A stretch of DNA of 64,000 nt from Ariolimax columbianus (lineage: Eukaryota; Mollusca; Gastropoda; Stylommatophora; Arionidae), in NCBI GenBank assembly GCA_036924085.1, contig JAVGWX010000012.1, forward strand, positions 32,360,272 through 32,424,271, given 5' to 3'. Numbering within the stretch: position 1 is the first letter of the stretch; each line of letters starts with the position of its first letter. This document shows positions 8,101 through 18,600 of the stretch, piece by piece. Made by a program: the position numbers and the translations under genes. Below the pieces are notes generated by a model. The model had not been told where the DNA came from. It saw only the letters and a program-made list of their open reading frames with translations, and made no database searches.

Positions 8101-11100
8101 AGTAGATAGCCCCATGCCCAACTATTCTTAGTCACCTCTTATTATTTTCCTGGTAGATTGCAGTGTTACTATTCTTTGCTCCATTTTTGGGCCTTGATAG
8201 CACTCATTTGAACTTTTTTGTTTGTTTTTAAAGCTACTAAATATCGTTATTGAAGTTATTTATGTATTTTTAATTTGATCCTTATTTAATTTTTTTTTCT
8301 AAATTGAAAACATTTTTTTGATCTGAATTCTTGTCTCAGTTTTTGTTTACTATCATGCCATTATTTTCCTTACTTTCTATTTCTGTTTGCTAACAGTGTT
8401 CTTCTTAATTTATAGTTAAATGTTTATTAAATAAAATCGTATTTTTATTATAATCTTTCTGCTTGATCTAGTGTTTCCTGTAATGTTATAGAATTTCACA
8501 TTTTTGCAATCATCTGATGCTGATATCGGTGTGTAGACTTGTATTATAGTTTTTGTCTTTCTCTTTAGTCGAATCATAATGATGTGGTAATCAACTGGGT
8601 TGTAACCAATAAGTGAATATGCCATCCTCTTTGATAGGATGAAACTGACCCCGTTCTATCCATAGGTGTCCTTCCCAGAGTAAATATAGGTTTCTCCTGA
8701 TCTGTCACACAGTGTCCTTGATCGGCCCATTTGGGTTTCTGATGTTTCAAGTGACTATTCTTAGTTGTAATTTTAGTCCTATTTCTGAGTTTTGCAGCGT
8801 AAAGCAGTCCGGCTTTTGGCCGTCATTTCTGTTACTTGTACAGGCTCTGAAATGGTCTTCTTCCTCTGTTTGTATCAATGATCTGCCTGGCCTGGGGGTC
8901 TCGCCATCAGATCTTTGAGTTTTGCCATTTTCGACTGTCATGGATTTCTATACATTTTTCATTCAGTAGTATGCCATTGCTTTGTGAACATTGTTCTGGC
9001 CGCTTACCAGTCTTGGTCCCTGGTGTGGCTTTAGTTTAATACCAGTTCCTTCCAGCTGATGCATTTAGAGTTATGGTCGTCCACCTTTTCCACCAGCAGT
9101 TGTGTGTACTAGGCAAGTGTGGACTCCTTTTTTTCCCTTTTCACCCATGCAGTTTAGCTGGTCAAAGCCGTTGTCCGGGGGGTGGCACTGTCATACACAG
9201 GCAGACTCTAGGAACCATACATGAGCTTAGCAGAAGCATGGGAACCAAATATAATCCTGGCATCATGGATGTGGCTACAACTCATGGTGAGGTTTTGCAC
9301 CTTACACTTCTGCCTTTATCACTGGAGATTTCAACGCAAAAGTTGGCAAAGAAAGCACAATAGAGGAGAGCTGTGTGCAAGGACCTTTTGGTTTTTTATA
9401 CAGAGATGTAAAGGAGAAAAACTGGTTGAATTCTGCATTGACAATAATCTTTTCATTGCCAACACCTTATTCAAACATCCGTCAGAGAAGACTTTACATG
9501 TGGACCTCCCTTGATAGGACGCAGGAACCTGTCGATTACATCCTAGAACTACAAAGATGGAGGTCAAGTGTGCTCTCAACAAAAATGCTCCCATTAGTGG
9601 ACTGCGACATGGATCACGAACTACTGGTTGCAGTTTTCAAGATAAGACTGAGAAACATAAGTAAAGGTACGCAGCCAATACGTTTAGATGTAAAAGTGAT
9701 ACCAATTAAATATAGCATCAAATTAAAAAATAAGTGAGACGTTGATTGCAGTCCAAGAGGAGACAACATTGGACGAGTTAACCACACATACAAGGGACGT
9801 TTTAATCTCGGTTACGCAAAACATTCCCAGTGTGGTGCACAAGAAACAGAGCTAGATAAAGGAAGAAACACTGATCTCATAGAAAATAAGAGAACATTAA
9901 AGTAATGGGGACTCTACAGAACCAATACAATGTATAGAAACTACAAGAACAGTCAGAAGGGAAATAAGAAAAGACAAGACAAGGTACATAATGGACACCT
10001 GTAAAAACATTGAGGAGCAACAACAAGGCAGGGATGGAGATGCCTTTAAGGAGATAAGAACACTGACAGGAGAGCTTCATCCAGTACCACATGTCATCAG
10101 TGATAAAGAGGATAAAATATTAACATGAAACAAAGATATTTTGAAAAGATAGAGGGAGTACTGTGGAACCATGGATGAAAACACCCCAAAGCATCAAGTT
10201 ACAATAATATAGAACGAAGAGAGAGATTTTGAACCCACATTAGACGAAGTGTGCTCGGCAATCCGAAGCATAAAAAAGGGAAAGTCACTTTAGTGCGATG
10301 ACATCCTAGCGGATTTAATACAGACAGGAGGGGAAGCCAGTGCTCACATTTATCATGTACTGTTCAAGAGGATCTGCACAGCACAGTGGCTCAAAGCATG
10401 GAACCGATCAATCTATATTCATCTTTCAAAGAAAGGCAACCTAAAAATATGCACAAATTACCGCACTATTAAACACTTGCAAATTCTTCAGCTTGACATT
10501 GACTGTGAAAGAGCGAACAGCTCGGCAGACCTAGTTAGCCAACAATCGCGCTAATAAGCCATGCTAGCAAGATCCTCTTGTGGATTCTATTGACGAGGAT
10601 TAAAAGAAAATTTGAATGTGAAATCCATGAAGTGAAAGCAGGTTTCAGAAAAGACAGAGGGACCAGAGATCACATATTTAATATGAGGAACATCTATGAA
10701 AAATGTAGAGAGTATAATGTAGTTCGGTATACACGTTTTATCGATTGCACCGAGGCCCTTAATTGCGTAAAACATCAGAAATTGTGGAATATCATTATAG
10801 TTATGGGGTTTCCAGTACATCTAATCCATCTGATTGAATCATTATATATCTGGGGTAGTTGTCTCGCCGCGGCGACTCAATTTCAACCAGTGTTCGTAAA
10901 GCGATCTCAGTCCCGCCAGGCGGAGCGATAGCGCGGGCTTGCGGAAAACGCTCGCCTGCCTTTCCCCGTAGTGCGAATTGGGTGCGGTTTGTGGTAGTGG
11001 CTCCTCCACCGAGGTGCGCTAGTCTGGTCCGTATCAGGAAACGTGGTCCGTCCGTGGTGATTTATCTAAGGCTTATAGCAGAGCTCGACAGTACGTCTCG

Positions 11101-15600: not shown

Positions 15601-18600
15601 AAACCCCGTCAAATAAACAAATTACCATCAAGCAGGGCGAGAACCTGATCACAGGTAAGAAAGCCGCAAACGCCTTTGTCGATCACTATGCCAGAGCAAA
15701 CCACATCGAGGTCCCTGCAGATAAGCATACAGACATTAGCGAAGAGCTAAAGGGACACGAAAACATAAATACGGCTCCTGAAGAGCACATGATGGCCAAA
15801 CTAACAATGCGCGAAATGGAAGAGGCTATGAGTACACTAAAGAAAAGGAAATCTCCCGGAAAAGACGGGATAACAAACGAAATGCTGATGGGGCTGGGCC
15901 AAACAGCGAAGAAGAAACTACTATCAGTCCTGAACCAAAGCTGGAAAAGGGGTATTGTACCCCAGGCATGGAAAGATGCAATACTGGTACCAGTACCAAA
16001 AACAGGGAAGGACAAAACAGATCCAAATGGATACAGGCCCATAAGCCTACTGAGCTGTGTTGGCAAGCTGATGGAACGGATAATAAACACCAGACTGATG
16101 TGGCATCTGGAAGAAAAACGAATACTAATTCCACAGCAAGCCGGCTTTAGACAGCACAGATCCACTGAGGACCAGGTCATCCTCATAGCCCAGGAGATAG
16201 AAGATGCCTACCAGGCACAGAAACACACAGTAGCTGTTTGGGTGGATCTGGAAAAGGCATTTGACAAAGTCTGGAAGGATGGACTTAGAGTCAAGCTAAG
16301 AAGAAGTGATGTCTGTGGGAAAATGTACAAGTGGATCAACCACTACCTCAAACAAAGAACGGCCAGAGTCCAAGTACAAGGGCAGATGAGCAAAAAGGTG
16401 ACACTCGAGCAGGGAGTACCCCAAGGGGGAGTATTGTCACCCACACTCTTCCTGGTATATATAAACGATATTACAGAGAATATACCAAGAAGAGTCCATA
16501 GCTCAATGTTTGCAGACGATCTGGCTATGTGGACCTCTGAAAAGAATCTCACAATAGCAAGAAATCGGATGCAGACGGCCCTAACATCGCTGGAAGAGTG
16601 GGCGAACTCATGGCTGGTCAAAATAAACGAGGAGAAAACCACGTGCACAATATTCTCGCTCTCATTAAAACCCCAAAGTACCAAATTAAGTCTGAATGGC
16701 AAAATCCTGCAGCCAAACGACAACCCAACCTATCTGGGAGTCACATTTGATCGGCGCATGACATGGAAAAGTCAGATTGAGAGAAACCGAATGAAAGCCA
16801 GAGAAAGGATGGCGATCATGAGGAAACTTGCTGGCACAAGCTGGGGAGCAGACGAAGGCATACTAAAGAAACTGTACACTGGAAGAGTGAGACCAGTTCT
16901 CGAGTATGGCATTGCGGCATGGACAACCGCAGCGAAGGCGAACTTCGATAAAGTTAACAAACTTCAAAACCAAGCCATGAGAATTATAACAGGTGGCATG
17001 AAGTCAACGCCAATTGTAGAACTTGAAAAGATTACAAAACTGCAATCCATGACCGATAGAAGAGACTGCAGAGCCCAGCTGCAGTCAGAGAAACTCAGAA
17101 GACTGACGGACCATCCAATGTACCAGAGACTAAACAATTTGGGAAATGGGAAACTAAAGCGGAGAAACTTTGCAGAAATAGCCAAAGCAAAGATGCACGA
17201 AGATCCCATAAACGCACTAACAACACCAAAACCCATCACTACTGTACGAAAACCTACTTGGAGGCAGGATATATTTCCAGAGGTGGTAGAAAATATACCA
17301 GGTATTGCAAACAAAAACTGCCAGAGTGAAAAAGAAAGGAGAGACACTACCCTAAGCTTCATAACGAAAAGCTACCCAAGCATGGACTGGACCCATGCAT
17401 ACACCGATGGTTCTGTAACAAACACTACACAGAACGGAGGGGCAGGAGCATTCCTGAACCTACCAAATGGCAGGAAAATAACACTGTCATTCGCTACTGG
17501 TAAGTACACAAGCAATTTCAGAGCAGAGACAGAGGCACTGAGGGCGGCAGTGGAAGAAATGGTAACACACAGTGAAAATGAGAGCCATATAGTCCTGCTG
17601 ACAGATGCTCTCGAAATAGTCACAGCGCTAAAAAGCCAGAAAAACACTGAGCTTAATGACTTAAGAGCAGCACTCTGCAAACTGTGCCAGCAGTCCGCAC
17701 CAAAAAGGGTAGTGGTACAGTGGGTACCGTCACACTGCAACATCCAAGGCAACGAGGAGGCAGACAGACTGGCAAAAGAAGGTGCAAGGCTACCACAAAC
17801 AGATACCAGTATGACGTACGAAGAGTCAAAATGGCTTATCAAAGCCAGATACATGTCCAAATGGGAAACCGAACATACTGGTTACACCAAAAACGATGCC
17901 TATTACCAGTTGAACCGAAGAGAGCAGGTCGTTGTCTTCAGACTTCGCACTGGCCACAACAGACTGAGGTACCACCTATTCAACAAATTGAAGATAGGGT
18001 GTACCGACGAATGCCCGTGCGGTACTGGTAAAATGACCACTGAACATCTGCTGCAGAACTGCCCGACATACGAGGATCAGAGAGAGCAGATGTGGCCATC
18101 GCCAGTGGAACTGCAAGACAAGCTCTATGGTAGTGGCGAGAGTCTCAGGATGACCGCCGCTTTTTTCGAGAAAATAATGGTTACTGTCTGACTGTGTACG
18201 CAGAAGAAGAAGAAGAAGAAGAATCATTATATCAGGAACAAGCTGCTGTCAAAAGTATCTGGTGAAACATTAGATTGGTTCGAAGTATGAAGGGAATTCG
18301 GCGGGTGTGTATCCTCTCCCAACACCTATTTAACATTTATGTAGAGTACATAATGAGGAACATTAGAGAGGGTGAGAATATAAGTAAGTTATGATCCCTT
18401 TACAATTGGCGGATGCAAGATCCCGGAGCTAAGATACGCAGATGATATAGTGATACTATCAAACAGTGCAGAGAAATTAAAACAGCTAATTGCAGCCGTA
18501 AACAGATGCAGCGAGGATCTTTTTAAAACTTCTTTGTAAACATAAACAAAACAAACAATAGAAAAAACAAGAAATCAACATAAATTTTAATTCGTGGGTA

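What the first reader, a model, noticed from the sequence alone, without database searches (positions are those of the whole stretch)
10836..18232. Pre-rRNA/LINE read-through transcript retrotransposed as one unit
Directly visible: an exact 12-bp duplication brackets a 7.37-kb block running 5'ETS, 18S 5' part, LINE 5' repeats, intact LINE frame, (GAA)n, and the interrupted host LINE frame resumes after it. Known: target duplication plus 3' simple repeat is the footprint of target-primed reverse transcription, and rDNA-resident LINEs such as R1/R2 are co-transcribed with rRNA. Inference: the LINE was resident in an 18S gene, was transcribed from the rRNA start site, and its unprocessed read-through RNA was copied into a non-rDNA site. 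If so, the block's first base marks the Pol I start, and the transcript escaped cleavage at the rRNA/LINE border. A young, full-length chimera of this kind looks unusual.
Basis: partly seen in the sequence, partly recalled or inferred. Interest (0 to 1): 0.95.

Follow-up and report, generated by a model that had tools for sequence, protein, structure and literature searches.

The report
LINE family copied with pre-rRNA heads
In this mollusc-like genome a jumping gene appears to travel as part of ribosomal RNA transcripts, so that many of its new copies carry the start of a ribosomal RNA gene at their front, beginning at the base where ribosomal RNA transcription seems to start.

Summary
Observation confirmed: a 12-bp target duplication brackets a 7,373-bp block of 5'ETS, 18S nt 1-1240, LINE and (GAA)7, and the host frame resumes after it. 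It is not a one-off. Of the 40 ETS+18S hits listed (2,187 candidates) all were read at the 5' end: 38 of 40 (34 of 36 independent sites) start at one base; 27 of 36 sites have an 8-14 bp duplication. In 20 of 20 loci chosen by the LINE's 5' end, 18S joins the LINE at the same nucleotide. On contig C50 that start base lies between a different spacer and an ETS with uninterrupted 18S and ITS1-like sequence. Heads look like fresh rDNA: 18S nearly invariant, ETS with shared indel haplotypes. Best reading: the LINE sits in 18S genes, is transcribed by Pol I from the rRNA start, and the 18S-LINE co-transcript is copied into ordinary sites; the reverse transcriptase also often jumps to further 18S templates. 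A resident copy in rDNA was not seen, and most genome searches did not complete; template switching remains the main rival. Closest known kind: R1/R2-type rDNA LINEs.

The parts
10836..10847 (.). left target-site duplication GAATCATTATAT
   Evidence: exact 12-bp match with 18221-18232
10848..11478 (+). 5' external transcribed spacer of pre-rRNA; base 10848 = inferred Pol I start (ATCTGGGGTAG)
   Evidence: 38 of 40 listed copies start at this base; the rDNA-like unit on C50 matches from this base on and differs upstream
11479..12718 (+). 18S rRNA nt 1-1240, broken at ..CAACACGG
   Evidence: Rfam RF01960, 952 bits; shared variation begins at 12719 in the alignment of copies
12719..14276 (+). LINE 5' region (rRNA-derived pieces, no frame of 200 codons)
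   Evidence: begins CCAACACTG; 20 of 20 LINE-selected loci have 18S joined here
12851..12913 (+). diverged copy of 18S nt 1177-1239 inside the LINE 5' region
   Evidence: 86% over 63 nt
13025..13087 (+). second diverged copy of 18S nt 1177-1239
   Evidence: 94% over 63 nt
13362..13766 (+). diverged 28S 3'-end-like stretch
   Evidence: Rfam RF02543, 67.8 bits and 77 bits; also in 9 of 10 family loci scanned; not listed
14380..14406 (+). short ETS-like stretch (86% over 29 columns)
   Evidence: E 8e-4; may be chance
14277..18191 (+). single LINE frame: endonuclease, reverse transcriptase, RNase H
   Evidence: 1,304 codons stop to stop; Pfam PF14529, PF03372, PF00078, PF00075
18203..18223 (+). 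(GAA)7 3' tail
   Evidence: 4-7 units in the 20 other rows of that call
18221..18232 (.). right target-site duplication GAATCATTATAT

Best explanation
A LINE (endonuclease-RT-RNase H, one long ORF) sits in 18S rRNA genes after nt 1240. Pol I starts at the normal rRNA start and transcribes ETS, 18S nt 1-1240 and the LINE as one RNA. This uncleaved RNA is the retrotransposition template. The LINE enzyme nicks ordinary chromosomal sites (loose motif TY|R), primes on the (GAA)n tail, and copies to the very 5' end of the pre-rRNA, leaving a ~12-bp duplication. New copies lack the Pol I promoter, so each should need a new transcript from rDNA. Sometimes the enzyme, at an RNA 5' end, jumps to another 18S-containing RNA and copies that too. 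SHOWN: common architecture, shared start base and 18S/LINE junction, TSDs, loose target motif, rDNA-like make-up of heads, the start base inside an rDNA-like unit, double heads. INFERRED: residence in 18S, Pol I as the polymerase, absence of a cap, template jumping as the cause of the double heads, and dependence on rDNA for new copies.
For: Start: 38 of 40 listed copies begin ATCTGGG at one base; on C50 that base follows a different spacer and precedes ETS and uninterrupted 18S plus ITS1-like sequence. Junction: same base in 16 of 18 aligned rows (L019 and L021 have G at 12719, which is also the next 18S base, so one more 18S base or a substitution) and in 20 of 20 loci chosen by the LINE 5' end, none of which lacks 18S; the non-autonomous relative shares it. 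Heads are not inherited with the body: in the head-selected set 0 shared variable sites in 1,859 head sites against 34 in 1,672 and 80 in 3,791 LINE sites; in the LINE-selected set (582-nt LINE 5' end at least 99% alike) 12 loci differ by 1.97% plus 3.8 indel events per pair in a 351-nt ETS piece, with 14 shared sites, but by 0.39% with 0 shared sites in 430 nt of 18S (16 loci: 0.43%, 1 shared site). So ETS varies while 18S is held, as in working rRNA genes. 5' ends: in 24 of 27 TSD copies the duplication abuts the start base with nothing extra. Jump copies whose template already had 18S joined to the LINE at nt 1240 (L122, L128, L140) or began at the rRNA start (7 loci) suggest that this junction exists in the RNA. 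Weak support for residence: the 18S break (nt 1240) lies 12 nt 3' of TTT|GA (nt 1228), the usual duplication length; with a matrix from 25 insertion sites, 4.8% of 18S positions do as well.
Against: No LINE inside an rDNA unit was seen; the one rDNA-like unit read (C50) has uninterrupted 18S and is bounded by N. Chimeras with 18S past the LINE site are common (19 of 20 loci fetched; set chosen for such 18S), so a jump origin of the main junction needs excluding. In L139 an 18S piece (to about nt 1414-1420) joins the exact LINE start, which suggests that LINE RNA beginning there also exists. 5 of 36 independent insertions read at both ends lack a clear TSD (L011 6 bp only; L016, L022, L039, L041). 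The target argument is weak: strict TTY|RA fits only 8 of 25 sites, the motif that fits 24 of 25 (TY|R) is common (20% of 18S positions lie 11-13 nt after one), and the R is partly forced by overlap of duplication and GAA tail. Both sets are top-scoring, not random, samples; the low ETS divergence is inflated by choosing on the head.
Confidence: 0.74

Rival explanations
1. No LINE lives in rDNA. LINE RNA from its own promoter is copied to its 5' end and the enzyme then switches to pre-rRNA at 18S nt 1240, perhaps guided by the 18S-like repeats in the LINE 5' region, and runs to the pre-rRNA 5' end.
For: 18S-18S and 18S-LINE joins at other places exist in this family (L023; L087/L105/L106; 19 of 20 loci). 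The LINE 5' region has 18S homology. L139 joins 18S at another place to the exact LINE start. LINE-1/28S chimeras ascribed to template switch or ligation are known in mammals (PMC13174262, passages read).
Against: The main junction is fixed on both sides (16 of 18 rows to the base, 2 ambiguous by one; 20 of 20 loci), whereas the other joins vary on the LINE side. 18S is perfect up to the junction but for private changes, with no mosaic of the LINE's diverged 18S repeats. Some jump templates already contain 18S joined to the LINE (L122, L128, L140). No LINE 5' end without 18S was found in 20.
Confidence: 0.18
2. The head was captured once and is now the LINE's inherited 5'UTR; dispersed copies are themselves transcribed.
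For: Architecture is uniform across many copies and a non-autonomous relative shares it.
Against: Heads and bodies vary independently and 18S is held while ETS is not. Copies begin at the start base with unrelated sequence upstream, so they lack the upstream part of a Pol I promoter.
Confidence: 0.04
3. Misassembly, or spread by DNA recombination from rDNA rather than by reverse transcription.
For: Some loci look like DNA duplications of one insertion (L012-L014; L023-L025; L071/L075; L079/L080, whose upstream pieces L097/L098 are the same).
Against: 27 of 36 independent sites have their own 8-14 bp duplication, and all copies read at their 3' end finish in (GAA)n; the host frame is continuous across the empty site.
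Confidence: 0.02

Closest known systems
R1 elements of Drosophila, incl. copies outside the rDNA (PMC2718515; passages and section 14 read)
   Same: rDNA-associated LINE; copies outside rDNA made by reverse transcription, with 3-14 bp duplications; melanogaster-type full-length copies outside the array carry upstream 28S sequence.
   Different: There the carried rRNA is 7-28 bp of 28S. Here it is the whole 5'ETS plus 1,240 nt of 18S, to the transcription start, in a large dispersed family.
R2 elements and their ribozyme (PMC3774820; passages read)
   Same: Co-transcribed with rRNA; tandem target-derived duplications at the 5' end are proposed to extend the element, as the 18S repeats here suggest.
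   Different: R2 RNA self-cleaves at or near the rRNA junction; here the retrotransposed RNA is uncleaved, and no Rfam ribozyme match was listed. R2 uses a restriction-like endonuclease (recalled); this LINE has an exo_endo_phos endonuclease.
R8 of hydra, an R2 lineage in 18S genes (PMC5035012, passages) and R7 of mosquito (recalled)
   Same: LINEs in 18S genes.
   Different: Target nucleotide not compared; no dispersed ETS-18S-headed family seen in the passages read.
LINE-1 chimeras with U6, 5S and 28S RNA (PMC13174262; passages read)
   Same: RNA fused 5' of a LINE in one insertion (28S mostly sense), explained by template switch or ligation; like the double heads here.
   Different: Few loci (18 for 28S), short fragments (median 269 nt), often starting near one position but seen across 28S; here a fixed junction and the full pre-rRNA 5' end.

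Membership tests
non-LTR retrotransposon (LINE), TPRT-mobilised | endonuclease + RT ORF | tested here: met
   Pfam PF14529/PF03372, PF00078, PF00075
non-LTR retrotransposon (LINE), TPRT-mobilised | target-site duplication and 3' simple tail | tested here: met
   27 of 36 independent sites, 8-14 bp; (GAA)n in those read at the 3' end
R-element (site-specific rDNA LINE) | copies present in rRNA genes at one site | tested here: inconclusive
   fixed 18S nt 1240 junction, weak target-motif fit, but no resident copy seen; rDNA searches mostly unanswered
R-element (site-specific rDNA LINE) | insertion restricted to rDNA | tested here: not met
   dispersed insertions at a loose TY|R motif (24 of 25)
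R2 clade | restriction-like endonuclease, no APE-type endonuclease (recalled) | tested here: not met
   exo_endo_phos endonuclease and RNase H
R2 clade | HDV-like 5' ribozyme | tested here: inconclusive
   no ribozyme among 5 Rfam matches up to E 5 in 10836-18300, but that run also missed the 28S-like stretch; divergent ribozymes not excluded
R1 clade (R1, R6, R7) | phylogenetic placement of the RT | not tested
   no tree with reference clades; the 4 named hits among 120 listed are gastropod
LINE/cellular RNA chimera by template switch | variable junction positions | tested here: not met
   main junction fixed; variable joins are seen only in the double-head and jump-type copies

The most novel reading that the evidence does not exclude
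A LINE whose life cycle depends on the rRNA transcription unit: it lives in 18S genes, is expressed only as pre-rRNA, and disperses genome-wide by copying the whole uncleaved pre-rRNA 5' part with itself, with the enzyme routinely switching among 18S RNAs. The dispersed copies then form a dated archive of rDNA ETS haplotypes and of pre-rRNA 5' ends and breaks.
Probability: 0.52. Interest if true: 0.87.

Novelty: new variant of a known kind. Interest (0 to 1): 0.8.

Why it matters
rDNA LINEs such as R2 are known to be co-transcribed with rRNA, but their RNA is cut near the rRNA border and, in the passages I read, copies in other sites carry at most short rRNA pieces. Here the uncut transcript itself seems to be the template, in a family with over a thousand search candidates. 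It would show that a LINE can live on Pol I RNA while inserting at loosely defined sites, map a Pol I start by dozens of natural cDNA ends, and leave a fossil record of ETS variants that are normally homogenised.

Tried and rejected
Rejected: a one-off chimera; misassembly; rDNA arrays as the context of the tandem loci L012-L014 (no other rRNA in L012) and L071/L075 (own duplication ATATCCCCTCTATG, and no rDNA gene between them, only a 28S-like LINE 5' region); the idea that LINE-attached heads carry one ETS type only (an artefact of choosing copies by head; one search shows several ETS types). Weakened on checking: my claim that insertion sites follow TTY|RA and that the 18S site fits at 1.6% chance. 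A recount gave TTY|RA in 8 of 25 sites and TY|R in 24 of 25; matrix scoring gives 4.8%.

Led nowhere: repeated attempts to find rDNA-resident copies; the first 18S target pattern (GGGAAACC...) was wrong for this genome (one search gave GGGAAAACTC). Papers PMC7650587, PMC13188248 and PMC5014426 (passages only) did not describe such copies. Full-text searches for similar reports; beyond the passages named I saw listings and abstract starts only. So 'not reported' means not met in these.
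Full report
WHAT IS IN THE WINDOW. A 12-bp duplication (10836-10847, 18221-18232) brackets 7,373 bp: 631 nt of 5'ETS, 18S nt 1-1240 (RF01960, 952 bits), a LINE 5' region, a 1,304-codon frame with endonuclease, RT and RNase H and (GAA)7. The host frame continues across the empty site. The assembly is 2.29 Gb in 401 contigs. 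The 4 named relatives of the LINE protein among 120 listed are gastropod (Littorina, Batillaria), so the host is probably a mollusc; it is not named.

A FAMILY, NOT AN EVENT. Searching the genome with ETS+18S gave 2,187 candidates, 40 scored and listed. I read the 5' end of all 40 (21, counting the window; 19). 38 begin ATCTGGG at the base that is 10848 here; L030 and L047 start a few nt in. Removing rows with the same flanks (L013, L014, L024, L025) leaves 36 insertions: 27 have an 8-14 bp duplication, 5 read at both ends do not (L011 6 bp only; L016, L022, L039, L041), and for 4 (L033, L038, L046, L047) the fetched piece did not hold the 3' end. In 24 of the 27 the duplication abuts the start base directly; L030 abuts its own slightly later start, and L021 and L044 have 1-2 extra nt. 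That almost nothing extra is present fits an uncapped 5' end (the cap argument is recalled, from no call). 9 of 16 independent full copies, the window included, keep the 1,304-codon frame open.

THE START BASE IS IN rDNA. Contig C50 holds an 18S that is uninterrupted through nt 1240 to its 3' end, followed by ITS1-like sequence and N (L133). 5' of it (L142) homology to the block starts at the same base, ATCTGGGG; upstream is a different spacer ending GGAATGTATATT, further up an AGT repeat and N. The ETS there is 94-95% identical to the two head types compared. 28S was not reached, so 'rDNA unit' rests on spacer, ETS, full 18S and ITS1-like sequence. The copies thus start where rDNA differs from its promoter side, as cDNAs run to the pre-rRNA 5' end would.

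FIXED 18S/LINE JUNCTION. In the alignment of 18 rows (window + 17 full copies, L012-L014 being one insertion) the head has only singletons up to 12718 and other variation starts at 12719, where L019 and L021 have G (the next 18S base) and 16 rows have C. To avoid choosing by the head I searched with the LINE 5' end (12719-13300): 1,545 candidates, 40 listed; of the 39 besides the window I fetched 20. 20 of 20 have 18S joined at the same nucleotide (two pairs look like DNA duplicates). 2 are truncated within 450 bp; of the other 18, 13 reach the start region (11 at ATCTGGGG, L099 and L104 1-6 nt later) and 5 do not.

HEADS COME FROM WORKING rDNA. In the head-selected set (16 independent copies) the head has 6 singleton and 0 shared variable sites in 1,859, while the LINE 5' region has 34 shared in 1,672 and the ORF 80 in 3,791. 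This set is biased towards like heads, so the 0.06% ETS divergence should not be taken at face value. In the LINE-selected set (12 independent loci) a 351-nt ETS piece differs by 1.97% and 3.76 indel events per pair, with 14 shared sites and, by eye, mosaic haplotypes, whereas 430 nt of 18S differ by 0.39% with no shared site (16 loci: 0.43%, 1 shared). An inherited pseudogene head would drift evenly; constrained 18S beside free ETS is the mark of functional rRNA genes. Differences of the 20 loci from the majority 18S are 0.19% (16 in 8,223), so these copies are young (inference).

IS THE LINE RESIDENT IN 18S? Duplications are mostly 11-13 bp (22 of the 25 used). The 18S break at nt 1240 lies 12 nt after TTT|GA at nt 1228. 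This fits the loose nick motif TY|R (24 of 25 sites), but that motif is common: 20% of 18S positions lie 11-13 nt after one. The strict form TTY|RA is rare in 18S (1.6%) but fits only 8 of 25 sites; a matrix of the 25 sites gives 4.8%. So the target argument is only suggestive. The LINE 5' region carries two older copies of 18S nt 1177-1239 ending at the same place, as if the element had been at this site before. No resident unit was seen: the rDNA on C50 is bounded by N, and most genome searches did not complete.

TEMPLATE JUMPING. L023 and the L087/L105/L106 locus have two heads in tandem inside one duplication. Searching for 18S just past the LINE site gave 392 candidates, 40 listed; 20 were fetched. 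Besides the C50 rDNA, 19 of 20 are chimeras; their outer ends and duplications were not read. On the 18S side 15 of 19 stop at nt 1396 or within 1 nt; the others at about 1420, 1423, 1670 and 1739. The query ended one base past nt 1396, so loci sharing that next base ranked first (11 of the 20 fetched); among the 8 other chimeras, 4 stop at 1396. On the other side: the rRNA start of a second head (7: L124, L126, L127, L129, L130, L132, L138), 18S already joined to the LINE (3: L122 and L128 from nt 1225, L140 from nt 932), places inside the LINE (8: L123, L125, L131, L134, L135, L136, L137, L141), and the exact LINE start (1: L139). So the enzyme, at the 5' end of its template, seems often to move to an 18S RNA ending near nt 1396. 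Templates left behind often already began at the rRNA start or held 18S-LINE, which supports a real co-transcript; L139 is the case pointing the other way.

A NON-AUTONOMOUS PARTNER. L023-L025 (same flanks, in a ~172-bp satellite) carry an element with the same head and junction, a related 5' region, no frame beyond about 150 codons in L024 and a (GAA)n tail; 3,537 nt in L024 and L025, 5,542 nt with the second head in L023. Whether L024/L025 lost a head by recombination is open.

COMPARISON WITH KNOWN SYSTEMS. Drosophila R1 copies outside rDNA carry 7-28 bp of upstream 28S (PMC2718515, section 14). R2 RNA self-cleaves at or near its 28S junction, and target duplications are proposed to extend its 5' end (PMC3774820, passages). 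Mammalian LINE-1 makes 28S chimeras, ascribed to template switch or ligation, 18 loci, median 269 nt (PMC13174262, passages). R8 sits in 18S (PMC5035012, passages). None of the passages read describes full ETS-18S heads. It works like an R-element in expression, but is not site-restricted and is not R2-like in its endonuclease; a ribozyme was not listed by Rfam but is not excluded. I file it as a new variant of a known kind.

VERDICT. The source unit in rDNA remains to be seen; the template-switch rival keeps about 18%.

Noticed in passing
L122-L141: 18S pieces in chimeras recurrently end at nt 1396 (..GTTCGCC), and 5 begin at nt 1224/1225 (ATTTGAC..: L122, L128 before the LINE; L125, L136, L139 in uninterrupted 18S); this suggests specific 18S RNA ends or cleavage sites. 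Unexplained.
   Followed up: partly
window 27404-30536 (-), 54775-55606 (-), 51132-51376 (+), 60694-60810 (-): Older relatives of the same LINE, 77-87% identical; no other ETS or 18S match in the window.
   Followed up: no
window 13362-13766: 28S 3'-end-like stretch in the LINE 5' region, also found in 9 of 10 family loci scanned; a relative at L120:1458-1866 matches 28S better (141 bits). Parts of the 5' repeats also look 28S-like (by eye).
   Followed up: partly
L087/L105: Both heads of this double-head copy carry nearly the same ETS type (99%), distinct from the window's; perhaps RNAs from one rDNA cluster.
   Followed up: partly
L015, L023-L025: Insertions in a ~172-bp satellite; the copies in L023-L025 share flanks and may have been amplified with it.
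   Followed up: no
window 41760-42815 (+): 351-codon frame whose translation looks like ankyrin repeats (by eye, not tested).
   Followed up: no
window 61961-62578 (+): Low-complexity frame of repeated TYLPTYLP-like motifs from a simple repeat.
   Followed up: no
L105 head 1, ETS 315-616: ETS variant with deletions and several insertions relative to the window's ETS, showing rDNA ETS length polymorphism.
   Followed up: partly
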